From Kiritimatiellia bacterium (GTDB lineage: Bacteria > Verrucomicrobiota > Kiritimatiellia > RFP12 > UBA1067), in the NCBI GenBank assembly GCA_017403825.1, contig JAFRDO010000066.1, positions 1 to 64,000 on the forward strand: DNA of 64,000 bases. The letters are read 5' to 3'. Under the pieces are notes generated by a model that saw only the letters and a list, made by a program, of their open reading frames with translations, ran no database searches and was not told where the DNA came from. Shown here piece by piece: positions 35,309-57,747 of the stretch; positions within the stretch are counted from its first letter, which is position 1, and every line of letters begins with the position of its first letter. Both the position numbers and the translations under genes were made by a program.

Positions 35309-37074
35309 CATTCAAGTTTGCTGTCTCAATATGTCCAATGCGCAATTTGCCCAAGGCGATGTCTTTGCCGGTGCTGTTTTTGGGAGCATGTCTGCCGTTA
35401 GCGGCGTTGGATGCGTCGCAGCATACCGGCAAGAGTGCCTTTCCCGGTAGAGGTGCGCCGAAGGCGCTGGTCATCATGCTCGACGGCATGCGGGCGGATA
35501 CGGTGGATAACGGCCTCGCTCCGAACCTGAAGGCGCTTGCGGACGGCAAGTGGCGGCCAGGCTACCGCGGCGCGTGGTCGCTAGGCGCTAACACGCTCCG
35601 CGACGGCACCACGGAGAGCGCGCCCAACCACGTCGCCATCGCGACAGGCATGACTACGAAGAAGACAGGCATCGACGACAACGGCGACCTCGTCCGGCGC
35701 GGCACGGCCACTGAAAAGCTGCCGACATGGCTCGCACGCCTTAAATCGTCAACTCCTAACTCCCAACTCCCAACTCCTAACGCTCTCAAACTGCTGCACA
35801 TCTTTGCATGGTACGGCGACCTGCGGCTGAGCCCTGACTACGGAGTGCAGTTCATCTTCGACCGGGACAAGGCCAACGCCAAGACTCTCGCCAAAATGAT
35901 GGGCGATGCCGATGCGCCGGACGCTGTCATGTGGTACATCGACCTTCCGGACCACGCCGGCCACGGCCACGGCTACTATCCGTATTCTAAGCAGTACATG
36001 GATGCGGTGCGTGAATCGGATAAATACGTCGGCGAGGTGCTGTCGGCAATCGCGGCGCGCCCGACGTTCGCCGAAGAGGACTGGCTCGTCGTCGTCACGG
36101 CGGACCACGGCGGTTGGGAGCGCTCCCACGGCCAGATGAGTACGCAGTGCTACACGATACCTTTTATCATGGCCGGTCGCCGCGTTCAGCAGGGACGCAT
36201 TCCGGGCGTTCCGCATAACTACGACGCCGCGCCGACGGCGCTCGCGCACTTCGGCGTTGACGTGTCGAAAATTGATTTTGACGGCAAGGTGCGGGGCGGT
36301 GAGGTCGCGGCGGTGCCGAAGACGCGGGCGCTCGGCGATGGGTTGGCCGTGTATCTTCCGTTTTCGGACGGGGCGGTTGTAAACAAATGCTCGTCAGGCG
36401 TCGCGGCGGAACTGTGCGGCAAGGCTGCGCCGATAGCGGACGGCGCGGCGGGCGGAGGGCTTCGCGTATCCTCATCGACAAACAGCGCCGGCGGCGTCTG
36501 CCTCAAAGGTTCGGAAAAGCTGAAGTTCGAGAACGGCGCGGACTTCGGATTCGCCGTTTGGGTGCGCACGTTCGGTCCGCAGATAGGCGACCCGGTCGTG
36601 TTCGGCAACAAGAACTGGTCGGGCGGCTCCAATCCCGGCGTGCTCCTCACCGCGTCCAGGGGAGTGGACATGTCGCGGGTCTGCCACGCCCACTACGACG
36701 TCAAGAAGCGCGGCAAGAGTCCGGGCTTCATGTTCAACTGCGGACGCGCCGGGAAGCGTCGCGAGGACCTTGGCGTCTACAATCCCGACTTCGGGCAGTG
36801 GACGTTCTACGCGGCGACGCGCGGGGCCGATGGCGTGGTGCGGTTCTACCAGGGGCGGCGCGACGGCTATCTGTATTGCGTCGCGGACGACCTCTCCGAC
36901 ATTGCGTTCGACACTGGAATGCCGTTCTGCATCGGGCAGGACGGGCGCGGCGTGGCCGAATACACGTTTGTGGGAGATGTCGACGAGTTCGCGATTTGGA
37001 CGCGCACGCTTGCGCACGACGAGGTCAGGCGCATCTTCGAGGCCGGGCTCGCCGGCAAGGGGCTGCCGGAATGA
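35305..37074 (+). CDS. Exported alkaline-phosphatase-superfamily phosphodiesterase with C-terminal LamG domain
   Basis: 589 residues; ATG 35305 has GGAGGAAG upstream and overlaps the ATPase stop. Hydrophobic signal AMSLPVLFLGACLPLAALDA. Catalytic residues: VIMLDGMRAD, TTESAPNHVAIATG (Ser nucleophile in the S-x-PNH context), DLPDHAGHGHG, VTADHGGWERSHGQ. From about 350 a LamG-like jelly roll (LAVYLPFSDGAVVNKCSSG, DFGFAVWVRTFGPQ, EYTFVGDVDEFAIWTRTL). An insert SSTPNSQLPTPNALK at about 150 is coded by a 7-bp tandem repeat and is not expected in the family. Overlaps the GDPD gene by ATGA, so the PDE/GDPD pair is fused at 30460 but separate here. Confidence 0.85.
   Translation: MTFKFAVSICPMRNLPKAMSLPVLFLGACLPLAALDASQHTGKSAFPGRGAPKALVIMLDGMRADTVDNGLAPNLKALADGKWRPGYRGAWSLGANTLRDGTTESAPNHVAIATGMTTKKTGIDDNGDLVRRGTATEKLPTWLARLKSSTPNSQLPTPNALKLLHIFAWYGDLRLSPDYGVQFIFDRDKANAKTLAKMMGDADAPDAVMWYIDLPDHAGHGHGYYPYSKQYMDAVRESDKYVGEVLSAIAARPTFAEEDWLVVVTADHGGWERSHGQMSTQCYTIPFIMAGRRVQQGRIPGVPHNYDAAPTALAHFGVDVSKIDFDGKVRGGEVAAVPKTRALGDGLAVYLPFSDGAVVNKCSSGVAAELCGKAAPIADGAAGGGLRVSSSTNSAGGVCLKGSEKLKFENGADFGFAVWVRTFGPQIGDPVVFGNKNWSGGSNPGVLLTASRGVDMSRVCHAHYDVKKRGKSPGFMFNCGRAGKRREDLGVYNPDFGQWTFYAATRGADGVVRFYQGRRDGYLYCVADDLSDIAFDTGMPFCIGQDGRGVAEYTFVGDVDEFAIWTRTLAHDEVRRIFEAGLAGKGLPE
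35751..35778 (+). repeat. In-gene heptanucleotide tandem repeat AACTCC[C/T], four copies
   Basis: AACTCCT, AACTCCC, AACTCCC, AACTCCT follow each other at 35751, 35758, 35765 and 35772 inside the phosphodiesterase gene. Because 7 is not a multiple of 3, gain or loss of a copy would shift the reading frame, so this could be a contingency (phase-variable) tract or an inserted microsatellite. Confidence 0.8.
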
Positions 37075-43366: not shown

Positions 43367-46300
43367 ATGAAGAACATGCTCCATGCCGTTGTCGCCGCTG
43401 CACTTGTCGTGGTGTTCGCAGTATCCTCAAATGCCACCACCTATACCAGCGCAAGCTACGTGCAAAACGGCTTGATTGCGCAATGGGACGGCATCGACAA
43501 TGCTGGAACGGGTACGCACGACCCGACCACAAACATCTGGAAGGACCTGAGGGGCAGCCTCGACATGACGCTCACGGACAAGGGTTCGTGGACGGCTGAT
43601 GGCAACGCGCTCTTTTGTAATAACGGCGCGGGTGCGCAGGGCGCAAGCGCGACGCCCGCCTACAAGACCATTGAAATCGTTTACAAGATGACATGGGCCG
43701 GCGGGCGCATCCTGTTCAGCAGCGGAATTGCGACGCGGTTCGCTGTTTTCGACAACGATGGCACCAGGCTCTATTTCGACGGGGAGAAGACGACAAAGAC
43801 CATCGTTTGTACGCATGACCCGAGCGCAATCTGTTTTACGACGGCGACATACGACGACAGTTCGACGGTGAGCAACCTCTATTTCAATGGCAACCTCCGA
43901 AACGACGACATCAAACTGAATACATGGGGCACGGGTGACGGCAAGGTCGCGGTCGGCGACAGGTCGCTTTCTGCATCATATCCTTGGATAGGCGAGGTCT
44001 ATGCAATCCGTCTTTATGACCGCGTCCTGACGGCGGAGGAGATTGCCTTGAACTGCGCGATCGACAAGGCGAGGTTCATGCCGTCGGATTACGCGGAGGA
44101 TGATTCGGTGACGAGTTCAAGCTATGTCCAGGATGGACTGATGGCTCAGTGGGACGGCATCGACAACCAAGGCACGGGAACGCACGACCCGACCGCAACA
44201 ACATGGAAAGACCTCGCCGGCAACAACGACCTCACCATTGTCGGTGGACTCCACGCCGAAGGCCGCAACGCCGAATGGCGGCGCGGCATCGCGCTCTACT
44301 TCAACAACGTCTCCCTCGGCAAGGCCGCAGTCTGCGGCGTCGACGGCATTGTTCCGAAGTACAAGACGATAGAGGTGGTGTACAAGATGACGTCAAGGTC
44401 AGCGCGCATCCTGTTCTGGGGCGGCGACCGTTCGCGCTATGTCTTGTTCGACCACAACGTTGACGATCCCTTCAGCACGGTGTACTTTGACGGAAGGGAA
44501 ATAACGAGAACGGACAGGACGTTCTGGGCCAAGGTGAAGTCCTATGATCCGACCTCTGCCGTCGCCACATACGACGACAACGACAACGTAACCGACGTCT
44601 TCATAGACGGCGCAGGGAAATCAGACAACAGGCAGTACAACACGTGGGGTGCCGGCGACAATCGTGTCACGCTCGGCTGGCGCTCGGTGGATACAGCTGG
44701 TACGACCTACGGCTGGGAAGGCGAGGTGTACGCGATTCGTCTCTACAACCGCGTCCTGACGCCCGAGGAGATCGCCAAGAACCACGCCATCGACGTGAAG
44801 CGCTTCTTCACGTCCGCGATGTACGATACGACCGGCATGGTCTCGTTCTGGGACGCGAAAGACAATGCCGGCACGGGAACGCACAGCCCGGCGGCGACGA
44901 CCTGGAAGAACCTCGTTCCCGGCGGTCAGGACATGACGGTTGACACGAGGATCGCCCAGTGGACCGCAGGCGCGATGCTCTGCAACGATGGAGTGACAAA
45001 CGACGCCGGCATCTACCGTCCCGCCGCGTACGGCACGGCGCCGCTTGAGTACAGCTCGCTTGAGGTGGTGTTCCGCAACGAGCGGTTGAACGGAACGTGG
45101 AACGCCTGGCTGCTCTCGAATGGCATCGACCGCTACTGCGTTCTCGCCGGAAACCGCACGATGTGGCAAAACTACATCGCGACCTACGCGATGGATTCCA
45201 CGCAGGGCGGCAACCATTCGCTTTCTTGGGTGAGGCGTTCCGGCGAGTCCGATGCCGACGCTGTCCCATACGTCGATGGCGAGAAAAAGAACTATGAATC
45301 GTATGGAGACTATTGGGGCGTTGGCGACAACGTCGTCCACGTTGGCGGACGCACAGGTTCCTACAGCTTCAGCGGACGCATCTATTCCGTGCGTGCATAC
45401 AGCAGCCAGCTTTCCACGGTGAAAGTTTATGAGAACAGGAAGATCGACGAGGTGCGCTATGCGAACTCGAAGTGGTGGAGCGGCGGCGACGGCTCGTTCG
45501 GGACTGTCGGCAACTGGCGCAGCGTGGACGTGGCGAAGGCGGTTCCCGGCACCGAGAGCACGGTTGAGCTGCCGTACGGCACCTACACGATTTCGCTGGA
45601 TCGTGACAGGACGGTCGGCGCGATGCGGGCGCGGAACGGCCACGTGTACTACTTCCCCACGCGCCTAATCGACGCGACGGTGGACATGGGCGGGCACAAG
45701 CTGACGCTCATGGGTTCGTACAGGGGCGAGGCGAGAAGCGGCTACAACGACAGGCGGTTTGCCCGCCTAAGCCTCACCAACGGCACGTTTCAGTCCGAGT
45801 CCATCCGCATCGGCGATCTTGCGGATCGCATTGTTGACAACGTGACATGGAAGGACTACGAGGATGCCTTAAAGTATGGCTCCGGCACGTTCTGCGTGGA
45901 AGGACCTGATACGACCGCGACGATTCGCAAGGACGTGGCGCTGGAAGGTCCGTGCACGACGCTTCGCGTTGCGGGTGGCGCGACGTTCTCGTGCAGCGAC
46001 CTGCGGATGTACAGCACGAAGAACCGCCTCGATTCCTATCCTTCCGGGAAGTACGACAGGGCGCTCGCCGAATTTACGGGAGCCGGCACGACGGCGACCC
46101 TTGGCAAGTTCTGCGGCTACAACGATGTGGATGTCGTGGTCAGCAACGGCGCATCCGTTGCCGTGAATGCCAGTACGGAGTATTTCTCGGCGGCGGAATG
46201 CTGGATCAGCAGCATCGGGCGCAGCTTCGAAGGCCTGCCCGGTTCCGGCAGCATTGTCGTGGATGACGCGACGCTCACGATGAAGAGCACGGGTTTTGCG

Positions 46301-46996
46301 GTCGGTGTGACGTATCTCGCTTCCGGCAGCGGCAATTCGTCGATGACGCTCAGGAACAATGCCACGCTTACGCTGACGGGCATGAGCCGGTTCTTCGTCG
46401 GAGTGGGTGCAAACGACAACAGGATGAGCGAGACGGGCTGCTTCCTCAACGTGTTGAGCGGATCGACGCTCGACGGCGGCTCCACGCAGCTTGAGGTCGG
46501 ACCTGTCGGCAACACGTCGTTCAGCGGAATTAATGTCGATAACGCAACGGTGAACTGCGGCGTTATCTATCTGGGCTCGAAATCGTCCGAAACATGCAGC
46601 TCCAACGATCTCCTGCACGTCTCAGGTGCGGCTCCGCGCATCAATCTCGCCAGCGAAGCCAGCACTTCGCTTCAGCTGCGCATGGGTACGCGGCTCAAGT
46701 TCACGATTCCCGAAAACGGCTTCGCGGCGACGCCGATCGTCACTGCCGGCGGTGTGCATGTGGAGTCGGACGAAGCTCAATACGCCGTCGATCCCGTCAA
46801 GCTGGTCATCGACGCCTCGGCGTTCAAGGGCGACAGGCAGACGCTTGTCAAGACTGCGACGGATTCGACGGCGGCGTTCCAGAAGCTCATCGGCAACATC
46901 AATTTCGTCGGCAGAAAACGCGGCTTGCTCACCATCGAAGCAGGTGGCACGGAGCTGGTATATTCCGTTCCCGGCGCACTTCTGATAATCCGCTGA
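43367..46996 (+). CDS. Giant exported protein of three LamG-like modules plus beta-strand region, LLIIR C-terminus
   Basis: 1,209 residues, signal peptide MKNMLHAVVAAALVVVFAVS. Three modules of about 230 residues: SYVQNGLIAQWDGIDNAGTG, SYVQDGLMAQWDGIDNQGTG and a third opening MVSFWDAKDNAGTG. They contain AYKTIEIVYKM-type strands, RILFSSG, and WIGEVYAIRLYDRVLTAEEI ends with IDKARF. Residues about 700-1180 are beta-strand-rich with autotransporter-repeat character (VEGPDTTATIRKDVALEGPC, GSGSIVVDDATLTMKSTG). Ends VPGALLIIR. Close relative of the 55201 protein. No catalytic site seen. Confidence 0.85.
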   Translation: MKNMLHAVVAAALVVVFAVSSNATTYTSASYVQNGLIAQWDGIDNAGTGTHDPTTNIWKDLRGSLDMTLTDKGSWTADGNALFCNNGAGAQGASATPAYKTIEIVYKMTWAGGRILFSSGIATRFAVFDNDGTRLYFDGEKTTKTIVCTHDPSAICFTTATYDDSSTVSNLYFNGNLRNDDIKLNTWGTGDGKVAVGDRSLSASYPWIGEVYAIRLYDRVLTAEEIALNCAIDKARFMPSDYAEDDSVTSSSYVQDGLMAQWDGIDNQGTGTHDPTATTWKDLAGNNDLTIVGGLHAEGRNAEWRRGIALYFNNVSLGKAAVCGVDGIVPKYKTIEVVYKMTSRSARILFWGGDRSRYVLFDHNVDDPFSTVYFDGREITRTDRTFWAKVKSYDPTSAVATYDDNDNVTDVFIDGAGKSDNRQYNTWGAGDNRVTLGWRSVDTAGTTYGWEGEVYAIRLYNRVLTPEEIAKNHAIDVKRFFTSAMYDTTGMVSFWDAKDNAGTGTHSPAATTWKNLVPGGQDMTVDTRIAQWTAGAMLCNDGVTNDAGIYRPAAYGTAPLEYSSLEVVFRNERLNGTWNAWLLSNGIDRYCVLAGNRTMWQNYIATYAMDSTQGGNHSLSWVRRSGESDADAVPYVDGEKKNYESYGDYWGVGDNVVHVGGRTGSYSFSGRIYSVRAYSSQLSTVKVYENRKIDEVRYANSKWWSGGDGSFGTVGNWRSVDVAKAVPGTESTVELPYGTYTISLDRDRTVGAMRARNGHVYYFPTRLIDATVDMGGHKLTLMGSYRGEARSGYNDRRFARLSLTNGTFQSESIRIGDLADRIVDNVTWKDYEDALKYGSGTFCVEGPDTTATIRKDVALEGPCTTLRVAGGATFSCSDLRMYSTKNRLDSYPSGKYDRALAEFTGAGTTATLGKFCGYNDVDVVVSNGASVAVNASTEYFSAAECWISSIGRSFEGLPGSGSIVVDDATLTMKSTGFAVGVTYLASGSGNSSMTLRNNATLTLTGMSRFFVGVGANDNRMSETGCFLNVLSGSTLDGGSTQLEVGPVGNTSFSGINVDNATVNCGVIYLGSKSSETCSSNDLLHVSGAAPRINLASEASTSLQLRMGTRLKFTIPENGFAATPIVTAGGVHVESDEAQYAVDPVKLVIDASAFKGDRQTLVKTATDSTAAFQKLIGNINFVGRKRGLLTIEAGGTELVYSVPGALLIIR

Positions 46997-47051: not shown

Positions 47052-47819
47052 GTGGAGACGTTGAAGACATCACGCCGTAATGGCGGGCTGAAGAAAATCG
47101 TGCGGGAATCCGGGTCGGCGATGCTGCCCCGGGAGAAGTTGCTTTCCGGCACGAGCGCCGCCGATCTCACCGACCAGGAGTTGTTGGCCGTCCTTTTGAA
47201 AACCGGCACGCACGACTGCAACGTTCTCGATCTCGCCGGCAGAATCCTCCGGCAGTTCGGTTCGATTTTCGATTTGTCACTTGCCGACTGGCGCGAGCTG
47301 AAGGAAGTACACGGGCTTGGAATCGTGCGCAGTCTCGAGCTTTACGCGATGTTCGAATTCGGGCGTCGCGCAATCAAGCAGCCCGTCCGCGATTTCCGGC
47401 GCGAGCCGTTCGATTCCCCGGACAAGGTTGCGCGGCTCTTGAAGCCATACGTCATCGGGAATCCGCAGGAAGAGTTCTACGCGATGTTCCTGGACGCCCG
47501 CGGCTATCTCCTTTGCGAGCCGAAGCCGATGACGCGCGGATCGCGCCGCGAGGCGACTGTCGGCGCGAGCGATGTGTTCCGCGAGGCCGTGAAGCGCAAC
47601 GCAAGCGCGGTCGTAGCCGCGCACAACCATCCGGGCGGCGGTTCGTCGCCAAGCCGGGCGGACATCGAAATCACGCGCCGGTTGATCGAGGCGGGAAGGG
47701 CTCTCGACATCGACTTCAAGGACCACGTGATCATCGGAGGCGCGCCAGACGGCGACGACTGGACCTCCATCCGCGAAAGCGGGCTTGTGGACTTCACCGG
47801 CAAAAGGCAACGGCAATGA
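47052..47819 (+). CDS. radC: RadC family JAB/MPN-domain protein
   Basis: 255 residues from a GTG at 47052; ATG 47121 (MLPREKLLSG) is possible. N-terminal helix-hairpin-helix region LPREKLLSGTSAADLTDQEL...LAVLLKTGT, then the JAB domain with VVAAHNHPGGGSSPSRADIE, the His-x-His and Asp metal ligands of the JAMM motif. RadC is not a proven repair protein and is often found in mobile and defence loci. Its TGA overlaps the ATG of hsdM (ATGA at 47816), so it is the first gene of this restriction-modification operon. Confidence 0.93.
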   Translation: METLKTSRRNGGLKKIVRESGSAMLPREKLLSGTSAADLTDQELLAVLLKTGTHDCNVLDLAGRILRQFGSIFDLSLADWRELKEVHGLGIVRSLELYAMFEFGRRAIKQPVRDFRREPFDSPDKVARLLKPYVIGNPQEEFYAMFLDARGYLLCEPKPMTRGSRREATVGASDVFREAVKRNASAVVAAHNHPGGGSSPSRADIEITRRLIEAGRALDIDFKDHVIIGGAPDGDDWTSIRESGLVDFTGKRQRQ

Positions 47820-49759
47820 CAGACGCGGACATCCAGACTCTTGAAAAGAAACTTTGGAAGACGGCGGACGACCTTCGACAGGGCGCAGGGCTCAAGGCGT
47901 CCCAGTACGCCCAGCCGATCTTCGGGCTCATCTTCCTCCGCTTCGCGGACAACAAGTACCGTCGCTTCGAGCCGCAGATCAAGGCCGAATTCGAAAAGCG
48001 GAAAGGCAAGCTGACCGAGCGCCCCTTGAAGGAAATCGCCATCAGTACTTGCGGATTTTCGCTCCCCGACTGCGCCCGCTACGACTACATTCTCAGCCAG
48101 CCCGCCGCCTCCCTCGCCAAAGTCATCCACGACGCGATGGAGGCCGTGGAAAGCGAGAACGAGGATTTGCGGGGCGTCCTCCCGAAGAACGTCTATTCGC
48201 AGATCGGACAGAGCAAGGACGAGAACCTTCTCAAGAAGCTCGTGCAGAATTTCAAGGACATTCCCGACGACGTCGAGATCGACGTGTTCGGCAAGATCTA
48301 CGAATACTTCCTCGGCGAGTTCTCGCTCAAGGAGGGACAGGGCGGCGGCGAGTTCTTCACGCCGACTTCCGTGGTGCAGTACATGGTGAAGGTCTTGAAG
48401 CCGACCGGCGGCAGAATCCTCGATCCCGCCTGCGGCTCGGGCGGCATGTTCGTGCAGGCGGCGCGCTACATGCACGCGAAAGGCGGCATCGACCTGAGCG
48501 TCTGCGGCGTGGAGAAGGACGGCGAGACGGTGAAGCTCGCCCGCATGAACCTTGCGCTCAACAACGTGAACGGCACGATCTACAACGCCAACACGTTCTA
48601 CGAAGACCCGGCAAAGTCGTTCGGGAACTACGACTACGTGATGGCCAATCCGCCGTTCAACGTCGATGGCGTAAACTATGCGTCCGTCCAGAACGAGCCG
48701 CGCTTCAACTCCTACGGCATTCCGAGGAACAAGTCGAAGCAGAAGAAGGGCACGGACGAGACCGTGCCCAACGCGAACTACCTGTGGATCAACCTTTTCG
48801 CGACATCGCTCAAGCCGAAGGGACGAGCCGCGCTCGTCATGCCGTGCGGCGCGGAGTCGGCGGGCGACAGCGAGCTTGAAATAAGGCGGCGTCTCGTCGA
48901 GGCCGGCATCATCAAGCAGCTGACGGTTCTTCCGAGCAACATGTTCAACACGGTCGTCCTCCCGGCCATGCTCTGGTTCTTCGACCGCGCGAAGCCGGAT
49001 ACGCCGAAGCGGGACGAGGTGCTTTTCGTCGATGCGCGGAAAATATACACGCAGGTCGATACGACGCACCGGAAGTTCACCGAGGAGCAGCAGCGCTGCC
49101 TTGCCTTGATTACGCGCCTCTACGAGGGCGACGGGGAGGAATACGCCGCACTCCGGGGCGACCTCGACGCGGCGGTCGCCAAGGCGAAATCAGATGCTTC
49201 CTCCCGATGTGCGGCAGAAGAGGCGTCCTTTGCGGAGGCAGCCGCGAAGATCGGAGAGGGCAAGGCGAACGCGAAGAAACTTGCCAAGGCGAAGGAGCGC
49301 CACGAGAAGACCATCGCGGAAATCAAGAAGGCGGCCGAGACGGAGATTGCGCGCCTCGAAGGGCATCTTGCGTGGATCAAGGAGAATTTCCCCGAAGGCA
49401 AGTACCGTGACGTGACGGGGCTTTGCAAGGTCGCGAAGATCAAGGGCGAGGGCGGCATCGAGGAAAACGGCTGGAGCCTCAATCCTGGGCGCTACGTGGG
49501 CGTGGTGCAGGAGGTCGATACGACCACCCCGGAAGAGTTCAAGGCGAAGATGCAGGCGATGTATGGCGAATTCGCCGCGCTTTCGGCCGAGGCGCACAAG
49601 ATCGAGAAGCGCATCGCGGAGAACATTTCTAGAATCGCTAGCGGGGCTAGTGATTCTAGGAGCTCTAGCGGCTCTAGCGGCTCTAGGAGCTCTAGCCTTT
49701 CTAGCAATTCTAGCAGTTCTAGAACCTCTAGCTCATCTAGAAAGGGGCCCGCCCGATGA
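47816..49759 (+). CDS. hsdM: Type I restriction-modification DNA methyltransferase, M subunit, with array-encoded SR-rich tail
   Basis: 647 residues. N6-adenine methyltransferase subunit that pairs with HsdS. HsdM N-terminal helical domain about 1-140 (LEKKLWKTADDLRQGAGLKA, SQYAQPIFGLIFLRF). Catalytic domain: EFFTPTSVVQYMVKVLKPTG, motif I DPACGSGGMF at D203, motif IV NPPF at N278. C-terminal coiled region binds HsdS. Normal family proteins would end near AHKIEKRIAENI. Here about 40 more residues follow in S-[S/R]-x triplets (SRI ASG ASD SRS SSG ...), encoded by a 9-nt CTAG array in frame, ending SSRKGPAR. Stop overlaps the hsdS start (ATGA). Confidence 0.95.
   Translation: MTDADIQTLEKKLWKTADDLRQGAGLKASQYAQPIFGLIFLRFADNKYRRFEPQIKAEFEKRKGKLTERPLKEIAISTCGFSLPDCARYDYILSQPAASLAKVIHDAMEAVESENEDLRGVLPKNVYSQIGQSKDENLLKKLVQNFKDIPDDVEIDVFGKIYEYFLGEFSLKEGQGGGEFFTPTSVVQYMVKVLKPTGGRILDPACGSGGMFVQAARYMHAKGGIDLSVCGVEKDGETVKLARMNLALNNVNGTIYNANTFYEDPAKSFGNYDYVMANPPFNVDGVNYASVQNEPRFNSYGIPRNKSKQKKGTDETVPNANYLWINLFATSLKPKGRAALVMPCGAESAGDSELEIRRRLVEAGIIKQLTVLPSNMFNTVVLPAMLWFFDRAKPDTPKRDEVLFVDARKIYTQVDTTHRKFTEEQQRCLALITRLYEGDGEEYAALRGDLDAAVAKAKSDASSRCAAEEASFAEAAAKIGEGKANAKKLAKAKERHEKTIAEIKKAAETEIARLEGHLAWIKENFPEGKYRDVTGLCKVAKIKGEGGIEENGWSLNPGRYVGVVQEVDTTTPEEFKAKMQAMYGEFAALSAEAHKIEKRIAENISRIASGASDSRSSSGSSGSRSSSLSSNSSSSRTSSSSRKGPAR
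49629..49745 (+). repeat. CTAG 9-nt periodic array 1 (13 units)
   Basis: CTAG starts at 49629 and recurs every 9 bases without exception to 49737 (13 copies). The other five bases vary: examples CTAGAATCG, CTAGCGGGG, CTAGGAGCT, CTAGCAATT. The last unit, CTAGAAAGG, supplies the ribosome site for hsdS. It lies at the 3' end of hsdM and is translated in the phase TCT-AGN-NNN, which avoids TAG stops. Confidence 0.95.
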
Positions 49760-51000
49760 GCACCATCGCAGAGCGCAAGGCCAAGGGTGCTCCGCCCCCC
49801 GCCGCCGAATGGCGCAAGGTGCGGCTGGGGGAGATTTGCTCAAAGATTGGTAGCGGAGCAACTCCAAGAGGAGGTGCTCAAGTTTATATTGATTCAGGTG
49901 TGTCTCTAATAAGAAGCCAGAATGTTTACAATAGCCATTTCAAGTATGAAGGTCTTAGCCACATAAGCGAAGAAGCGGCAAACAAACTCAAGAATGTTAC
50001 GGTAAAGCCCAATGACATACTGCTCAATATCACAGGTGATTCTGTAGCGAGATGCTGCATTGTTCCGGATGAAATACTACCAGCTAGAGTTAATCAGCAT
50101 GTTGCAATATTGCGGCCGAATATACATGAATTATTGCCAGAATATCTTCAGAGAGTCATGGTTGCTCCTTATATGCAGGCGTTTATGGTTGGGTTGGCAT
50201 CAAGTCAAGGAGGCTCTCGCAATGCATTGACGAAAGGGAATATTGAAGAATTTGAAATCTCCCTTCCCCCTCTTCCCGTTCAGCGGCGGATTGCGGAGAT
50301 TCTGGGGGCGTATGACGATTTGATCGAGAACAACCGGCGGCGCATCGCGCTACTCGAAAACATGGCCCGCGAGCTCTACCGCGAGCGGTTCGTGAGAAGG
50401 GCGGGAGATGGGCGGAAGGTCGCGCTGGGGGAGGTATTTTCAATTATAAGAGGACTGTCCTATTCGTCAAAGGAAATAGATGCTGATGAAGGTGTGAATC
50501 TCATCAACCTGAAAAACATCAAGGCGTTTGGAGGTTTTCGCGAGGAGGGTACGAAAAAGTATTCGGGCGCGTACAAGGTTGAGCAATCGGTAAAGCAGGG
50601 TGATTTGGTGATGGGTGTAACCGACATGACCCAGGATAGGCGAACTGTGGGCGCGGTTGCGCTTCTTCCCGACGTTGAAGGGGAAAGCGTGATTTCCGCT
50701 GATTTGATAAAGATCATTTCGAATGTTGGCAATCATTTCCTGTATTGCATGTTTTGCTTTGGGGGAGTTTCGCGGCAAGTTGGCCAATTTGCAACAGGCG
50801 CAACCGTGCTGCATTTGCGCCCGCAGGCGGTGCTTGATTTTGCAGTTGCCTTGCCAAATTCAGAAGAGATTGCGCCCTTCGAGGCACAGGTGGCGCCGCT
50901 TTTCGACGAGCAGGCGAATCTGCTGGCGCAGAATCGCAACCTTGCGCGGCAGCGGGATGCGCTTTTGCCGCGATTGATGCGGCCCGGGGAGGGGCGATAG
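49756..51000 (+). CDS. hsdS: Type I restriction-modification specificity subunit
   Basis: 414 residues. HsdS binds the bipartite target and holds two HsdM. Two target-recognition domains: TRD1 about 20-165 (WRKVRLGEICSKIGSGATPR ... SLPPLPVQRRIAEILGAYDD), central helix to about 215, TRD2 about 220-365 (KVALGEVFSIIRGLSYSS). It ends with a second conserved helix (APFEAQVAPLFDEQANLLAQ ... LLPRLM). TRD-coding DNA (about 49850-50260 and 50430-50850) is visibly more AT-rich than the flanks, typical of exchanged recognition domains. The site recognised cannot be read. ATGA overlap with hsdM. Confidence 0.93.
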   Translation: MSTIAERKAKGAPPPAAEWRKVRLGEICSKIGSGATPRGGAQVYIDSGVSLIRSQNVYNSHFKYEGLSHISEEAANKLKNVTVKPNDILLNITGDSVARCCIVPDEILPARVNQHVAILRPNIHELLPEYLQRVMVAPYMQAFMVGLASSQGGSRNALTKGNIEEFEISLPPLPVQRRIAEILGAYDDLIENNRRRIALLENMARELYRERFVRRAGDGRKVALGEVFSIIRGLSYSSKEIDADEGVNLINLKNIKAFGGFREEGTKKYSGAYKVEQSVKQGDLVMGVTDMTQDRRTVGAVALLPDVEGESVISADLIKIISNVGNHFLYCMFCFGGVSRQVGQFATGATVLHLRPQAVLDFAVALPNSEEIAPFEAQVAPLFDEQANLLAQNRNLARQRDALLPRLMRPGEGR

Positions 51001-51005
51001 ATTGG

Positions 51006-51162
51006 CTAGAGAAGCTAGAACTGCTAGAAACGCTAGAAACGCTAGAATGGCTAGAGAAGCTAGATTTGCTGGAATTTCTAGGTTTTCTAGAACCTCTAGG
51101 TCTCCTAGAATCTCTAGACCTTCTAGACCTTCTAGACCTTCTAGAACTTCTAGCCCCTCTAG
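51006..51162 (+). repeat. CTAG 9-nt periodic array 2 (18 positions)
   Basis: From 51006 to 51159 CTAG occurs at every ninth base, with one degenerate unit (CTGG at 51069). Units drift gradually: CTAGAGAAG, CTAGAAACG, CTAGAACCT, CTAGACCTT (three in a row), CTAGAACTT. The array fills the gap from the hsdS stop (51000) to the AAAGG ribosome site of the four-helix-bundle gene. It looks like slipped-strand expansion followed by divergence, with the CTAG core held. Confidence 0.95.
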
Positions 51163-51182
51163 CCTCACAGAAAGGCCTTTCC

Positions 51183-51827
51183 ATGAAACCTGAAATGCCG
51201 ATACTCAAGAAGCAGACCAACTGGCAGAATCTCTACTTCTACCAGAAGACCGTCGTGCTCTACCAGATGACAGTCGTGTTCTGCCGACGGTTTCTGCCAA
51301 AATTCGGCGACCGCACGGTCGATCAGATGGTGCAGGCGGCCCGGAGCGGAAAGCAAAACATAGTCGAAGGCTTCGCCGACGGTGTGACTTCCACGGAAAT
51401 GGAGCTGAAGCTCCTGAACGTTGCCCGCGCGAGCATCAAAGAACTCAAGGAAGACTATCTCGACTATCTCCGGTCGCATCAATTGACCCTTTGGCGCCCG
51501 AAGATTCACCCTCGCTACGACGGGATGCTGAAATTCTGCCGTGCGCACAACACGCTTGATGACTACGAGCCTTATTTCGCCAAGTGGAGCGACGAGGAAT
51601 TCGCCAACTGCGCCAACACGCTTTGCCACATGGTCGACAAGATGATGAGCACGCACATGGCGAAAATGGCGGCAGACTTCAAGGAAAACGGCGGCATCCG
51701 CGAGCGCATGACAGCCGCCCGGCTTGGACGCCGCCAGACCCAGAACGAGGAAATCGCCGCGCTCAAGGCGGAGAATGCCGCACTTCGGGCCGAAATCGCC
51801 AGATTGAAAGGAAATCTAAATGGCTAG
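51183..51827 (+). CDS. Four-helix-bundle (S23-like, suffix-domain type) protein within the R-M operon
   Basis: 214 residues. Residues 10-120 match the four-helix-bundle family once called S23 (NLYFYQKTVVLYQMTVVFCR, VDQMVQAARSGKQNIVEGFA, ELKEDYLDYLR). A longer C-terminus ends in a coiled coil (NEEIAALKAENAALRAEIAR). The family includes Avd of diversity-generating retroelements by fold, but no reverse transcriptase is here. I start at ATG 51183; the frame upstream is array sequence. The stop TAG is part of the first CTAG of array 3. Placement between hsdS and hsdR suggests a role in, or hitch-hiking with, the R-M system. Confidence 0.85.
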   Translation: MKPEMPILKKQTNWQNLYFYQKTVVLYQMTVVFCRRFLPKFGDRTVDQMVQAARSGKQNIVEGFADGVTSTEMELKLLNVARASIKELKEDYLDYLRSHQLTLWRPKIHPRYDGMLKFCRAHNTLDDYEPYFAKWSDEEFANCANTLCHMVDKMMSTHMAKMAADFKENGGIRERMTAARLGRRQTQNEEIAALKAENAALRAEIARLKGNLNG

Positions 51828-51895
51828 AAAATCTAGAATCTCTAGATTGGCTAGAACTTCTAGAACTGCTGGCATAGCTAGTACTCCTAGAAAGG
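51824..51895 (+). repeat. CTAG 9-nt periodic array 3 (8 units)
   Basis: CTAG at 51824, 51833, 51842, 51851, 51860, (CTGG at 51869), 51878 and 51887: strict 9-base spacing. The first CTAG supplies the stop of the upstream gene. The last unit, CTAGAAAGG, supplies the ribosome site of hsdR, exactly as array 1 does for hsdS. Confidence 0.93.
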
Positions 51896-51905
51896 AGCCC
51901 TGCTG

Positions 51906-54900
51906 ATGGCTAAGATCCTCACCGAGGACGACATCGAGAAAGCCCTTGTGAAATTCCTGACCGGCGCGGGCTGGGGCTATTCCGAAATCAACGCCATGAC
52001 GGCGGTGCGGGAAAAGCTGTCCGACGGCACGGGTCGTGATGACAAGAGCCAGTGCGTCCTGCCGGCGATCCTGCGCGAGAGCCTGAAGGCGCTGAACCCG
52101 GAGATTCCCGAAGCGAAACTTGAAGAGGTTGCGAGCGAGCTGAGTGAATATCGCGGCGCGGACGGCGTGAACATGACGGTGAACCGCGAGTTGTACGAAC
52201 GCATCCGCAATGGCGTCCCGGTGCAGTTTGTGAAAGATGGCGAGGAGAAGAGCGAGACGGTCCGGCTGGTGAATTTCGACGAACCCTACAAGAATGATTT
52301 CCGCGCCGTCCGGCAGATGTGGATTCGGGGCGTAAACGACGCGTGGAGGCGTCCGGACGTGCTCATCTTCGTGAACGGCCTGCCGCTCGTGTTCATCGAG
52401 CTCAAGAACGCCGACAGGAAGGTGGAGAACGCATTCAACGACAACCTCGCGAACTACAAGAAGGACATCCCGAACCTCTTCGCCTTCAACCAGGTTTGCG
52501 TCCTCTCGAATGCGGGCGAGACGCGCGTCGGCGCGTTTGCGAGTCCGTGGGAACATTTCTTCGAGTGGTTGCGGCTGGACGAGAAGGGCGAGCGCGCCGA
52601 CCGCGAGACGCTGAGGAAGAACGTGACGGACTACGCCGGATGCTCGCTGGAGCTGCTGGCGAAAGGGCTTCTCGATCCTCAGCGGCTTATCGACTACGTG
52701 GAGAACTTCGTCCTTTTCGACGGACTTGAGGCGAAGGTGAACAAGATACTCGCCAAGAACCACCAGTACCTTGGCGTGAACGCGGCGATGGCGAGCCTTG
52801 CGAACCGAAAGACGTTGAAAGGAAAGCTCGGCATCTTCTTCCACACGCAGGGCAGCGGCAAGAGCTATTCCATGGTCTTTCTCGCGCGCAAGGCGATCCG
52901 GAAGCTTCGCGGCAATTTCTCGTTCCTTGTCGTCACCGACCGCGAGAACCTCGACGGGCAGATCGCCAAGACGTTCGTGAGGTGCGGCGTCGTGAAAGCG
53001 GAGGACGAGGCGCGTCCGAAGAACGCGGAGAAACTGCGAGAGGCGCTCTCGGACAACAAGCTCTTCACCTTCACGCTGATCCAGAAGTTCCGATACGACC
53101 CTGGGCGCGAATATCCGGTGCTGTCCACGCGCGACGACATCATCGTCATGGTGGACGAAGCCCACCGCACGCAGTACAAGGACCTCGCGGCGAACATGCG
53201 CAAGGGATTGCCGAACGCAAACTACCTGGCGTTCACGGGAACGCCGCTCGGCAAGACGGGCGAATGGTTCGGCGGGACGATTTCCGAATACAACTTCGCC
53301 GACGCGATAGCCGACGGCTCGACGTGCCCGATCTACTACCGCAACATGGCTCCGACGGTCGATTTCTGCAAGAACATGATGGATTCCGACGTCGAGGCCA
53401 TCGGTGACGAGGAAGAGCTTTCGCTGGACGAACGCGAGAAGCTCGAGCGCAGGTTCGCGGCGGAAATCGAGGTTCTGACGCGGGACGAACGGATTACGGA
53501 CAACGCGAAGAAAATCGTCGAGCACTTCGTGACGCGCGAGTGGCGCGGCAAGGCGATGGTTGTTGCTGTTGACCGCTATACGGCGGTGAAGTACCACAAC
53601 GCCGTGAACAAGTACTGGCCGGAGTTCCGCAAGGAACTGAACGTGCGGCGCATCCATGCGGCGACGGCGGAGGAGCGCGACCGTTGGCAGAAGGCCATCG
53701 ACTACATGGACAAGGTCGAACGGGCGGTTGTGATCTCCGGGGACGCCAACGAAGAGCAGCAGTTCGCGAAGAAGGGGATTCCCGGCATCAGGGAAATACG
53801 CGAGCGCATCGACAAAATCGACAGCGAAGGTGCTGACATAGAAGACAACTTCAAGGATCCAAACCACCCGCTGTCGCTTGTGTTCGTCTGCGCGATGTGG
53901 CTTACCGGCACGGACATCCCCTGCATGAGCACGATGTACCTCGACAAGCCAATGAAGGGGCATACGCTCATGCAGACCATCGCCCGCGTGAACAGGGTGT
54001 TTCCCGGCAAGAACCACGGACTGATAGTCGATTTCGTCAACATCTTCAAGTACGTCGAAAAGGCGCTGGGCATCTACGTCAAGCCAGGCGCTGGTATCAC
54101 AATGCCGGTCAAACCGATAGACGATTTGATCGAATCGCTCAACAAGGGCGTTGAAGACACGAAAGCCTTTCTCGGGACAATCGGAATCGATCTCGGCAAA
54201 GTGTCGAACCTGCCGAAGAACCAGAGTTTCGACAAGGTCGAGGCGTTCAACGATTTCCTGGACAGGATTCTGTCCAAAGACGACTGGCGGAACAGGTTCT
54301 TCATCTACACAAACAAAGTTGACGCGGTCTGGACGGCGTCGAAACCCGAAGTGTTCGATTTCCTGGGCCGTGTGAGCAAGTATCTCTCGCCGGTTCTTTA
54401 TTTGCGGAAGATGATGGACGCACGGGCTGATTCGTCGCGGCTTGAGAAGGCGATAGCGAGGCTCGCGGCGGAGCTGGATTCGCGCGTCACGATAAAGGTC
54501 TCCGGCGTGCAGAACGGAGAAGGCCGCGAAATCGACCTTGCAAAGATCGACGTCACGAAAATCGACGAGAAGCTCAAGCAGACGAACTATCCGAACCTCA
54601 TGATCGACGACTTGCGCAAAGTCGTCGAGGACGAGCTTGCGAAACTGCTTGGAAAGAACAAGACGCGAACGGTGTTCAGCGAGCGGTACCAGAAGATCGT
54701 CGACGAATACAATGCCGGGAGCGTCGAGTCGGAAGAGGCGTTCAAGCGCCTGATGGAGCTTCTGGACCGGATGAAGGAAGAGGAGAAGCGCGCCGAACGC
54801 GAAGGGCTCACGGAACAGCAGCTTGAGATATTCGACCTTCTTTGCTCCGGCAGGAAGCTGACAAAGGCGCAGGAGCTGGCGGCAAAGCTTGCGGCCAAGG

Positions 54901-55124
54901 AGCTTGTCGAGAAGATCGAGGCGAATGTGGACGCGGCGTTTCCGCCGGACTGGTTCAAGTATCAGGCGCGGAAACTGCAGGTGAGGGATTTCATAAGCGA
55001 GACGTGCGCAGACCGCCTCGACGGACAGTTTGACAAAACGATGTTCGACGACGGCATGCGGCGCATCTACCGGCTTTTTCTCGATCGTGCGCTCAACAAC
55101 GAGCCGATACTGCACGTGGCGTAA
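51906..55124 (+). CDS. hsdR: Type I restriction enzyme R subunit (nuclease and translocase)
   Basis: 1,072 residues, usual length. N-terminal PD-(D/E)XK nuclease with D151 (RPDVLIFVNG) and E165-L-K167 (VFIELKNADRK). SF2 translocase: Walker A HTQGSGKSY (K319), DEAH box VDEAHRTQY (D417), LAFTGTPLG, and the later VVAVDRYTAVKYHN and MQTIARVNRVFPGKNHGLIVDF motif VI block. The C-terminal region for HsdM/HsdS assembly ends FLDRALNNEPILHVA. All key residues are present, so restriction should be active. Preceded by array 3. Confidence 0.95.
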   Translation: MAKILTEDDIEKALVKFLTGAGWGYSEINAMTAVREKLSDGTGRDDKSQCVLPAILRESLKALNPEIPEAKLEEVASELSEYRGADGVNMTVNRELYERIRNGVPVQFVKDGEEKSETVRLVNFDEPYKNDFRAVRQMWIRGVNDAWRRPDVLIFVNGLPLVFIELKNADRKVENAFNDNLANYKKDIPNLFAFNQVCVLSNAGETRVGAFASPWEHFFEWLRLDEKGERADRETLRKNVTDYAGCSLELLAKGLLDPQRLIDYVENFVLFDGLEAKVNKILAKNHQYLGVNAAMASLANRKTLKGKLGIFFHTQGSGKSYSMVFLARKAIRKLRGNFSFLVVTDRENLDGQIAKTFVRCGVVKAEDEARPKNAEKLREALSDNKLFTFTLIQKFRYDPGREYPVLSTRDDIIVMVDEAHRTQYKDLAANMRKGLPNANYLAFTGTPLGKTGEWFGGTISEYNFADAIADGSTCPIYYRNMAPTVDFCKNMMDSDVEAIGDEEELSLDEREKLERRFAAEIEVLTRDERITDNAKKIVEHFVTREWRGKAMVVAVDRYTAVKYHNAVNKYWPEFRKELNVRRIHAATAEERDRWQKAIDYMDKVERAVVISGDANEEQQFAKKGIPGIREIRERIDKIDSEGADIEDNFKDPNHPLSLVFVCAMWLTGTDIPCMSTMYLDKPMKGHTLMQTIARVNRVFPGKNHGLIVDFVNIFKYVEKALGIYVKPGAGITMPVKPIDDLIESLNKGVEDTKAFLGTIGIDLGKVSNLPKNQSFDKVEAFNDFLDRILSKDDWRNRFFIYTNKVDAVWTASKPEVFDFLGRVSKYLSPVLYLRKMMDARADSSRLEKAIARLAAELDSRVTIKVSGVQNGEGREIDLAKIDVTKIDEKLKQTNYPNLMIDDLRKVVEDELAKLLGKNKTRTVFSERYQKIVDEYNAGSVESEEAFKRLMELLDRMKEEEKRAEREGLTEQQLEIFDLLCSGRKLTKAQELAAKLAAKELVEKIEANVDAAFPPDWFKYQARKLQVRDFISETCADRLDGQFDKTMFDDGMRRIYRLFLDRALNNEPILHVA

Positions 55125-55200: not shown

Positions 55201-57747
55201 ATGAAGAAGGTCTCGCTTCTCGCCGTTGTCGCCGCTGCGTTCGCAGTTTCGGCGCATGCCACCCCATACACCAGTGCGAGCTACGTGCAGAGGGAGCATC
55301 TGATCGCCCAATGGGACGCCATCGACAACGTCGGCACGGGAACGCACGACCCGAACGCGAAGGTCTGGAAGAACCTCGCCGGTACCGGCAGCATCTACGA
55401 CCTGACGCTCACGAACAGCGCATGCTGGAAGAACGGCGACAGGCTCGTCGTCAACAAGACTTCCGCCGTCGGCACGAGTACCATGCCTGCCTACAAGACC
55501 ATCGAGGTCGTCTTCAGAGCGACGATGGCTCCCGGTGCGAACAATGGGCGCATTCTCTTCACCAGTGGAGACGGTGATAAACGTCAACTTGTGGTGTTCG
55601 ACTATGGTGACAATGCCACGAAGGGTTATTTCTCCGGTACGAAGGCGTATCATCAATGCGTCAATTGGCATAACGAAGCCGACAACCTGCGTTCGCTGCG
55701 CTCGATGGCGGGCGTGTTCGCCAACACCAGCGCAAATACCTCAGCCGTGTACGGCGATGGCATAGAGCGAACCACTACGATGTCCAACGACTTCTGGTCT
55801 GGTTCCGTGATGATGATCGGCGCCCGGCGAGGCAGTTCTGGCGAGGAATTTGGCTGGTACGGCGAAGTCTCGACAATCCGCATCTATGACTGCGCACTGA
55901 CGGCTGAGGAAATCGCCCAGAACCACGCGATCGACGTGGCGCGTTTCGGTGAGCAGTTGCCTTCAAGCGCGGACTACGTTCAGGACGGACTTCTCGTGCA
56001 GTGGGACGGCATCGACAACGCAGGCACGGGCGTCCACGATCCGGCCGCGACGACGTGGAAGAACCTTGCGGGCGGCGGCTACGACCTGACGCTCACGAAC
56101 AGTGCAACCTGGAATGCGGAGGGTCGGGCACTTGTGATAAATGGCGTTTCGGCGGTTGCGGATGGCGTCACGCCGGAGTACAAGACGATCGAGGTTGTCT
56201 GCAAGCGGACGAGTTCGGGTGCGCGCATGATGTTCCATAGCGGACATAAGACGAGGTTTGTCCTTTTCGATGCTGACGGCGGAAATCAGCGCGCCTATTT
56301 CTCTGGCGACACGGCAGACAACCAATCTACCGTAACGAAATATGTCAAGCAGCCGTTTTTGGGATCTGAAATAGACTTTCTTGCCGGACGGTATGACGAT
56401 GACGGCAAGGTGACGGATGTGTTCAAGGACGCGAATCAGCGCGAAGACGGTGCACGCGGAAACAGCTGGGGCGTAGGGACGGGCATATCGATTGGCGGGC
56501 GCTTGAACACGTCAAATCCCTATCTGTGGTACGGCGAGGTGTATGCAATCCGTCTCTACAGCCGACGCCTCACTAAAGCCGAACTGGCGCGTAACCACCA
56601 GATCGACTGCAAGCGGTTCTTGACAAGCTCAAGCTATATTCAGGAAGGGCTGACCGCGCATTGGGACGGCACGGACAACGTCGGCAGGGGACAGCACGAC
56701 TCGTCCGCGACCACATGGAAGAATCTTGTTTCGGGCGGCATGGATCTGACAATCGGCTCCGGCGTGTGGACCGATACGGCGTTGATGTGCGTCGGCAGCA
56801 GCACGATGGCGGCGACGGGAACCAACTATCAGGCATACAACACGCTTGAAGTCGTGCTTATGAACGCCAATCACGGTGCCGCATCCATGCCGTTCAGTGC
56901 CGGCCTTGCCAACAGAGTTCTTGCGTTAGCGGGGAATCGTGTCCAGTGGCGGAGCCAGTGGGCGACAACCAATTTCACGCAATCTACGGTCGGGCGTTAT
57001 TCGCTGACGGGAATTCTGACAGACGGGAGTGAGGCGGCCTACGCAAATGGCGCAAAGATTCAGTATGGTGCGTATAATGACAACTGGGGCCAAGGGGCGA
57101 GCTATGTTCAGGTCGGCGGACGAATACAGTCGGGCAGCTATTATGCCTTTACGGGCGACATCTTCGCCATCCGCACCTACAACAACGCATCAATTCCCGA
57201 ACGGGTTGCCTACAACTACAAGGTTGATCGTCGTCGCTTCAGCCTTGATGCGAACACCTTCACATGGGCGAGCGCAGGCGACGGGTTCTTTACGAACAGT
57301 AACTGGACGGTTTACGGGCAGGCCTCGGTGAAAGCTCCGGGCGCGTCGGATGCAGTTGCGTTGCCGGACGGAGACTACACGGTGACGCTGGACGAGACGG
57401 TCGTCGAATCGCTTTCCGTCGGTGCGGGGGCAAAACTTAAGATGTTGCTGCCGTCCGGTGCAGATGCGACGAACGCGGCGATGCTCACGGTGGTCGGCGG
57501 CATGACCGCTGCGTCCGGCGCTGGGCTTGTGCTTGATGCGCAGTCGTTCGGCAAGAAGCATCCAGAGGAAAGCATCACGATTGTCGAGTGCGCGAATGAT
57601 TCTGCCGCCGCGCTTCAGGCGTTGGCCGACAACCTCTCCTTCGACAATACCGACAGTCTGCATCAGGGTACGGTTGCAGTTGTCGATGGCAAGAAGCTCG
57701 TCTATACCGCACCGGTCAAAGCTGGCGTGATTCTCATTATCCGCTGA
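55201..57747 (+). CDS. Giant exported protein of three LamG-like modules, ILIIR C-terminus
   Basis: 848 residues; signal peptide MKKVSLLAVVAAAFAVSAHA. Three modules open SYVQREHLIAQWDAIDNVGT, DYVQDGLLVQWDGIDNAGTG and SYIQEGLTAHWDGTDNVGRG. Each has an AYKTIEVVF-type strand and ends like GWYGEVSTIRIYDCALTAEE with NHAIDVARF. A short C-terminal region with a beta-repeat flavour (GDYTVTLDETVVESLSVGAG) leads to KAGVILIIR. Paralogue of 43367, sharing its promoter; this copy lacks the 480-residue beta-strand region. No catalytic residues. Next gene begins directly after the stop. Confidence 0.85.
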   Translation: MKKVSLLAVVAAAFAVSAHATPYTSASYVQREHLIAQWDAIDNVGTGTHDPNAKVWKNLAGTGSIYDLTLTNSACWKNGDRLVVNKTSAVGTSTMPAYKTIEVVFRATMAPGANNGRILFTSGDGDKRQLVVFDYGDNATKGYFSGTKAYHQCVNWHNEADNLRSLRSMAGVFANTSANTSAVYGDGIERTTTMSNDFWSGSVMMIGARRGSSGEEFGWYGEVSTIRIYDCALTAEEIAQNHAIDVARFGEQLPSSADYVQDGLLVQWDGIDNAGTGVHDPAATTWKNLAGGGYDLTLTNSATWNAEGRALVINGVSAVADGVTPEYKTIEVVCKRTSSGARMMFHSGHKTRFVLFDADGGNQRAYFSGDTADNQSTVTKYVKQPFLGSEIDFLAGRYDDDGKVTDVFKDANQREDGARGNSWGVGTGISIGGRLNTSNPYLWYGEVYAIRLYSRRLTKAELARNHQIDCKRFLTSSSYIQEGLTAHWDGTDNVGRGQHDSSATTWKNLVSGGMDLTIGSGVWTDTALMCVGSSTMAATGTNYQAYNTLEVVLMNANHGAASMPFSAGLANRVLALAGNRVQWRSQWATTNFTQSTVGRYSLTGILTDGSEAAYANGAKIQYGAYNDNWGQGASYVQVGGRIQSGSYYAFTGDIFAIRTYNNASIPERVAYNYKVDRRRFSLDANTFTWASAGDGFFTNSNWTVYGQASVKAPGASDAVALPDGDYTVTLDETVVESLSVGAGAKLKMLLPSGADATNAAMLTVVGGMTAASGAGLVLDAQSFGKKHPEESITIVECANDSAAALQALADNLSFDNTDSLHQGTVAVVDGKKLVYTAPVKAGVILIIR

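What the first reader, a model, noticed from the sequence alone, without database searches (positions are those of the whole stretch)
49629..51895. Three strict 9-nt-period CTAG arrays at the gene junctions of a type I R-M locus
CTAG recurs at exactly 9-base steps: 13 of 13 positions (49629-49737), 17 of 18 (51006-51159) and 7 of 8 (51824-51887). The two exceptions are both CTGG. CTAG is usually one of the rarest tetranucleotides in bacteria, so selection or a generating mechanism must keep it. Each array sits between genes; arrays 1 and 3 end with an identical CTAGAAAGG that supplies the next ribosome site. The five other bases drift. Possibilities include a protein-binding platform on palindromic TTCTAGAA-like sites, an mRNA element setting subunit ratios, or self-limiting tandem expansion. 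I know of no described element like it.
Basis: seen in the sequence. Interest (0 to 1): 0.88.

Follow-up and report, generated by a model that had tools for sequence, protein, structure and literature searches.

The report
Repeat arrays flanking a four-helix-bundle gene
The CTAG arrays are the flanking repeats of a small, widespread gene for a four-helix-bundle protein that has settled in a restriction-modification operon; across at least three phyla such genes sit inside short tandem repeats whose repeat length follows the type of protein, which gives long-unexplained bacterial intergenic repeats a candidate protein partner.

Summary
In detail: CTAG recurs every 9 nt 13/13, 17/18 and 7/8 times. 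The R-M locus is one of many hosts; the constant partner is the 4-helix-bundle gene between arrays 2 and 3 (TIGR02436 + TIGR04258 suffix; S23/IVP fold). Of 110 loci of such genes, 94 have short-period arrays within 300 bp, at step 9 in 71; array coverage is 20 times that of nearby control DNA. The motif follows the protein, not the host: on a protein tree CTAG needs 9 changes against 46 shuffled, and in 30 new loci CTAG flanks marked 10/10 close homologues and 0/20 others. Plain 4-helix-bundle genes have 7-nt arrays instead, in genomes of the window's phylum and on cyanobacterial plasmids, like the heptamers before S23p in the Coxiella rRNA intervening sequence (PMC4990558). CTAG is conserved while spacers change (0/28 against 12/30). 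Solo arrays also lie at gene junctions and in frame inside genes. Best reading: an IVS-like element whose protein recognises its own repeats; binding and RNA processing are inferred, not shown.

The parts
47816..49759 (+). hsdM, type I R-M methyltransferase; last ~39 codons are encoded by array 1
   Evidence: ORF; homologous HsdM proteins in L166/L172 end about where the array begins
49629..49740 (.). array 1: 13 CTAG at 9-nt step, in frame in the hsdM 3' end
49756..51000 (+). hsdS, specificity subunit
   Evidence: PADLOC Specificity_I 1e-88
51006..51162 (.). array 2: 17 of 18 CTAG at 9-nt step, begins 5 bp after the hsdS stop; folds as a long imperfect hairpin
51183..51827 (+). four-helix-bundle suffix protein, 214 aa; the cognate gene of the arrays
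   Evidence: TIGR04258 5e-16, TIGR02436 1e-6; AlphaFold model mean pLDDT 85, best PDB match 2gsc Z 15.2
51824..51890 (.). array 3: 7 of 8 CTAG at 9-nt step; its first TAG is the stop codon of the four-helix-bundle gene
51906..55124 (+). hsdR, restriction subunit
   Evidence: TIGR00348 7.5e-142

Best explanation
The arrays are the cognate flanking repeats of a small IVS-like genetic element whose only gene codes for a four-helix-bundle (S23/IVP-type) protein. The element has settled in the hsd operon: array 2 - gene - array 3 between hsdS and hsdR, plus a solo array in the last codons of hsdM. Shown here: the gene-array association, the dependence of motif and period on the protein, conservation of CTAG over spacers, whole-unit length changes, and occurrence of solo arrays at other genes. 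Inferred: the oligomeric protein recognises one motif per repeat on RNA or single-stranded DNA, and complementary arms (inverted for non-palindromic motifs, automatic for CTAG) fold and are processed or insulated in the operon transcript, so that the insertion is tolerated.
For: Tetramer runs within 300 bp in 94/110 four-helix-bundle-suffix loci, step 9 in 71; coverage 14.9% against 0.74% in control DNA of the same loci. Motif clustered on the protein tree: 39 changes against 77.9 shuffled, 0/200; the CTAG and CCGG clades each hold Kiritimatiellae and Bacteroidales members. New loci: 10/10 proteins at >=70% identity have 5-24 flanking CTAG, 0/20 others have more than 2 (p=3e-8). Plain four-helix-bundle genes: period 7 in 26/33 loci with runs, period 9 in none; suffix genes: period 9 in 95/129, 7 in 3. 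Plain genes have inverted arms 23 to 2 (plus 11 to 2 on cyanobacterial plasmids), palindromic-motif genes mostly direct arms. CTAG 0/28 substituted against 12/30 spacer sites between orthologous arrays (L166/L172), with exact 9-nt indels. Period-8 solo arrays occur in the 4 genomes whose own gene has period-8 arrays (in one of them possibly only beside the gene), against 4/57 others. Coxiella's rRNA IVS has strain-variable heptamers in front of S23p, with the RNase III site at the first repeat (PMC4990558).
Against: No binding or processing was tested. Several array-rich genomes (G297, G046, G266) lack a detected CTAG-type gene, although assemblies are incomplete. In a broader class sample only 10/36 suffix genes had strict runs. 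Permuting spacers shows no general selection for spacer pairing in CTAG arrays (43 arrays, mean z 0.12), which argues against stable hairpins as the selected trait there. Loci are related, so the counts are not fully independent. No mobility enzyme is encoded.
Confidence: 0.62

Rival explanations
1. Hitchhiking microsatellites: arrays are tandem-slippage products; the small gene merely tolerates or prefers such neighbourhoods, and gene plus flanks are copied together, so motif tracks the protein by descent without recognition.
For: Copy-number changes are whole units; neighbouring spacers in array 2 are more alike than shuffled (lag 1 p=0.008, lag 2 p<0.002); solo arrays exist without the gene.
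Against: Drift should erode CTAG as fast as spacers, but it is 0/28 against 12/30. The period differs with protein architecture in several phyla. CTAG is otherwise rare.
Confidence: 0.22
2. Arrays are mobile repeats of REP type (MITE-like) copied by an unknown enzyme elsewhere in the genome; the four-helix-bundle gene is one cargo.
For: About 45 dispersed four-unit copies in G271; arrays at ackA-pta-kpsF junctions and in frame inside MnmG and a transporter.
Against: Motif and period follow the four-helix-bundle protein; no transposase stood out beside the arrays looked at (not screened systematically).
Confidence: 0.13
3. Regulatory element of the R-M operon (subunit ratio, or specificity switching by recombination between arrays flanking hsdS).
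For: Arrays flank hsdS on both sides and hsd neighbours recur (13/79); arrays supply the next ribosome sites.
Against: Most copies lie at unrelated genes; the close hsdR homologue in G297 has no array or four-helix-bundle gene at the hsdS-hsdR junction.
Confidence: 0.03

Closest known systems
23S rRNA intervening sequences (IVS) with S23p, e.g. Coxiella burnetii (PMC4990558)
   Same: Four-helix-bundle S23/IVP protein gene flanked by repeats; the Coxiella IVS has tandem heptamers before the ORF that vary between strains, and complementary ends cut by RNase III.
   Different: Here in protein-coding operons, 9-nt CTAG units, a suffix domain on the protein; RNA processing not shown.
Heptamer repeats of cyanobacteria, Beggiatoaceae and Bacteroidetes (TAACTGA repeats, MacGregor 2015, PMC4679880; STRR)
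   Same: Intergenic short tandem repeats near start and stop codons, patchy between species; a repeat-binding protein as the mobile part was suggested there.
   Different: Period 7 and no protein partner identified; here a partner gene is proposed and the period is 9.
REPtrons (TnpA-REP/RAYT with cognate REPs, PMC8266576)
   Same: A protein gene next to its cognate repeats, with further copies dispersed in the genome.
   Different: No HUH transposase; units are tandem arrays, not 20-40 nt hairpins.
Rickettsia palindromic elements (RPE; reviewed in PMC10969869)
   Same: Repeats inserted in frame inside housekeeping ORFs.
   Different: RPEs are ~150-bp families with conserved peptides; these are arrays of degenerate 9-mers.
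Avd of diversity-generating retroelements
   Same: Same four-helix-bundle fold (4dwl Z 11.3, 8ub7 Z 11.2), although Z in this range is common for helical bundles.
   Different: 8-10% sequence identity; a reverse transcriptase neighbour was not noticed but not screened for.

Membership tests
TIGR02436/TIGR04258 four-helix-bundle suffix proteins | profile match over the curated cut-off | tested here: met
   58.3 bits (cut-off 40) and 29 bits (cut-off 24)
S23/IVP fold | four-helix-bundle fold like 2gsc | tested here: met
   Z 15.2, 115 residues, rmsd 2.4; Pfam PF05635 only below its cut-off
S23/IVP fold | homopentamer | not testable with these tools
   pentamer known for 2gsc (PMC4990558); only a monomer was modelled here
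23S rRNA IVS | located in an rRNA gene | tested here: not met
   lies between hsdS and hsdR
23S rRNA IVS | complementary arms around the ORF | tested here: inconclusive
   inverted arms for plain four-helix-bundle genes (23 to 2); CTAG arrays are self-complementary but spacers do not pair better than permuted ones
23S rRNA IVS | RNase III excision | not testable with these tools
   needs RNA data
STRR/TAACTGA heptamer repeats | tandem unit of 7 nt | tested here: not met
   unit is 9 nt; plain four-helix-bundle genes do have 7 nt
REPtron | HUH (TnpA-REP) transposase next to the repeats | tested here: not met
   the gene is a four-helix bundle
REPtron | cognate repeats dispersed in the genome | tested here: met
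   solo arrays in relatives; weak in the window's own genome, one on C80
Rickettsia palindromic element type | in-frame insertion inside ORFs | tested here: met
   22 of 67 period-9 solo arrays inside ORFs, 0 of 23 period-8; MnmG
Diversity-generating retroelement | reverse transcriptase and template repeat nearby | not tested
   neighbour ORFs were not screened for reverse transcriptase

The most novel reading that the evidence does not exclude
Four-helix-bundle (S23/IVP/TIGR04258) proteins are a general class of repeat-recognising proteins that carry, keep and spread their own short tandem repeats; the repeat length (7 or 9 nt) is set by protein architecture. This would explain heptamer repeats of cyanobacteria and others as well as the CTAG arrays, and would be a new kind of mobile element without a nuclease of its own.
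Probability: 0.35. Interest if true: 0.92.

Novelty: new variant of a known kind. Interest (0 to 1): 0.8.

Why it matters
Short tandem intergenic repeats have been described in bacteria for decades without a protein partner or mechanism, and S23/IVP proteins without a function. The link proposed here makes both testable in culturable bacteria (Prevotella nigrescens, Nostoc). It may also explain why four-helix-bundle genes keep turning up inside R-M and CRISPR-cas operons.

Tried and rejected
R-M-specific element: rejected, most loci are elsewhere. Selection for spacer-level RNA hairpins in CTAG arrays: not supported over 43 arrays, though the window arrays fold better than shuffled sequence. 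Phage or plasmid gene: no phage hit, one weak viral contig, one Prevotella replicon. Anti-phage family: no PADLOC match for the four-helix-bundle protein. A first fold-statistics script timed out. Literature searches for CTAG arrays, TIGR04258 or nonamers beside this gene found nothing; the library holds open-licence papers only. Genome-level co-occurrence of arrays and CTAG-type gene (11/22 against 6/42, p=0.006) is suggestive only: partly cis arrays, and incomplete genomes.

Full report
Observation. CTAG recurs at exactly 9-nt steps 13/13, 17/18 and 7/8 times, both exceptions being CTGG. CTAG occurs only 31 times in the rest of the window, so a run of four at this step is not a chance event. 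In the whole genome four in a row are found only in these arrays and at one place on contig C80. Array 1 is read in frame as the last ~39 codons of hsdM; homologous HsdM proteins end about where it begins. The first TAG of array 3 is the stop codon of the four-helix-bundle gene.

What the arrays go with. The pattern is common but patchy in relatives: 21 of 58 genomes with four in a row, 21 of 288 genomes of the class with six in a row, reversed control near zero. The steady partner is the gene between arrays 2 and 3. It matches TIGR02436 plus TIGR04258, the four helix bundle suffix domain; the predicted structure (pLDDT 85) matches S23/IVP structures 2gsc (Z 15.2) and 2rld (13.7), and more weakly Avd. 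Its closest homologues in the genus have CTAG arrays on one or both sides at unrelated sites, at 9-nt or 8-nt step. More distant homologues have arrays with other motifs, such as TCCGG, GAGAC, GGGAC, GGGAT.

Statistics. A scan of public genomes gave more than 570 relatives, the 80 best mostly from Bacteroidales and Kiritimatiellae of animal guts. Over 110 loci, 94 have runs of a tetramer at constant step in the 300-bp flanks, step 9 in 71, 8 in 8, 10 in 10; coverage is 14.9% against 0.74% in DNA further away in the same loci. In a wider class sample strict runs were found in 10 of 36, coverage 4.4% against 0.5%; by eye several of the others have short inverted GGGAC/GTCCC arms. On a tree of 145 proteins the motif label needs 39 changes, 77.9 when shuffled; CTAG alone 9 against 46. 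The CTAG and the CCGG clade each hold members of both phyla, so motif follows the protein rather than the host. The rule was then tried on 30 new loci: all 10 proteins at 70% identity or more to the window protein had 5-24 CTAG in 600 bp of flank, the other 20 had 0-2.

Period and architecture. As a specificity control, plain four-helix-bundle genes (no suffix) were taken: 22 of 30 have runs, but at step 7 in 18. On 14 plasmid loci, 13 of them cyanobacterial, 11 have runs, step 7 in 8. Together, plain 26/33 at step 7 and none at 9; suffix 95/129 at step 9 and 3 at 7. Plain genes have inverted arms on the two sides (23 to 2; 11 to 2), CTAG-type genes mostly direct arms (30 to 11), as expected if the palindromic core makes orientation irrelevant. 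Independently, the Coxiella rRNA IVS has tandem heptamers before its S23p ORF, variable between strains, with the RNase III site at the first repeat (PMC4990558).

Evolution of the arrays. Between two Bacteroidales species with the same insertion at an hsdM junction (L166, L172), CTAG is unchanged at 28 sites while 12 of 30 spacer sites and 39 of 315 flanking sites differ, and length differs by exact 9-nt steps; L173/L174 show the same (0/20 and 3/24; 18-nt steps). In the more scrambled pair L092/L093 the difference is smaller (9/113 against 20/129). Neighbouring units of array 2 are more alike than distant ones. So units are duplicated and lost whole, and CTAG is kept by selection or by the mechanism. 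Spacer order does not improve folding in general.

Solo arrays. Arrays without the gene lie at junctions of ordinary genes (ackA-array-pta-array-kpsF in G296, named by reading the sequences) and in frame inside genes: 25 units in MnmG of G005, five in a transporter of the window's genome. Of 67 period-9 solo arrays 22 are inside ORFs, of 23 period-8 ones none: steps of nine keep the frame. Some of these ORF calls are mechanical. Period-8 solo arrays occur in the four genomes whose own gene has period-8 arrays and in 4 of 57 others; in one of the four, G264, the listed ones are beside the gene itself (3/4 without it, p=0.004).

Host sites. 13 of 79 loci are next to hsd genes, others in cas operons (known co-occurrence, PMC3936711). 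The upstream gene is codirectional in 59 of 72. The closest hsdR homologue (G297, 78%) has no array and no four-helix-bundle gene between hsdS and hsdR, so the hsd operon can do without them.

Interpretation. The best-supported reading is an IVS-like element: a small gene within arrays that its product recognises. Recognition explains why the motif follows the protein, why the period follows the architecture, and why CTAG is kept. Binding, oligomer geometry and RNA processing are inference. The chief rival is co-inheritance of slippage-prone flanks; conservation of CTAG and the change of period with architecture speak against it, but only a binding test decides. Limits: the loci are related to one another and were taken from the best-scoring hits, most genomes are metagenome assemblies, and array-rich genomes without a detected cognate gene exist (G297, G046, G266).

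Noticed in passing
window 35751-35777: A short period-7 array (AACTCCC-like, four units) lies inside the ORF of a phosphatase-like protein (35305-37074); no four-helix-bundle gene beside it.
   Followed up: partly
G000:C58:15941-16216 (L117): A broken second copy of a four-helix-bundle-suffix gene (one TAG in frame); G000 has further copies on C58 and C39 with other flank motifs.
   Followed up: partly
L116, L119, L132 (and L114): Some four-helix-bundle-suffix proteins end in a cysteine-rich, topoisomerase-like zinc ribbon, which hints at nucleic-acid binding.
   Followed up: no
genomes G074, G151, G106 (control column): The reversed control pattern shows that GATC arrays at 9-nt step exist in a few other genomes of the class.
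   Followed up: no
genome G008: 180 matches of five CTAG at 8-nt step, the most in the genus, with no CTAG-type four-helix-bundle gene found in the assembly.
   Followed up: no
L370, L373, L376: On cyanobacterial plasmids a four-helix-bundle gene sits between cas6 and cas4 or between cas10 and cmr3, flanked by short repeats.
   Followed up: partly
L131 (G297:C45): The hsdS-hsdR interval of a close homologue of this R-M operon holds about 700 bp of other DNA with no array or four-helix-bundle gene; content not identified.
   Followed up: no
window 43367-46996 and 55201-57747: The R-M operon is flanked by two large related surface-type ORFs, and a RadC-like ORF (47052-47819) directly precedes hsdM (named by eye).
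   Followed up: no
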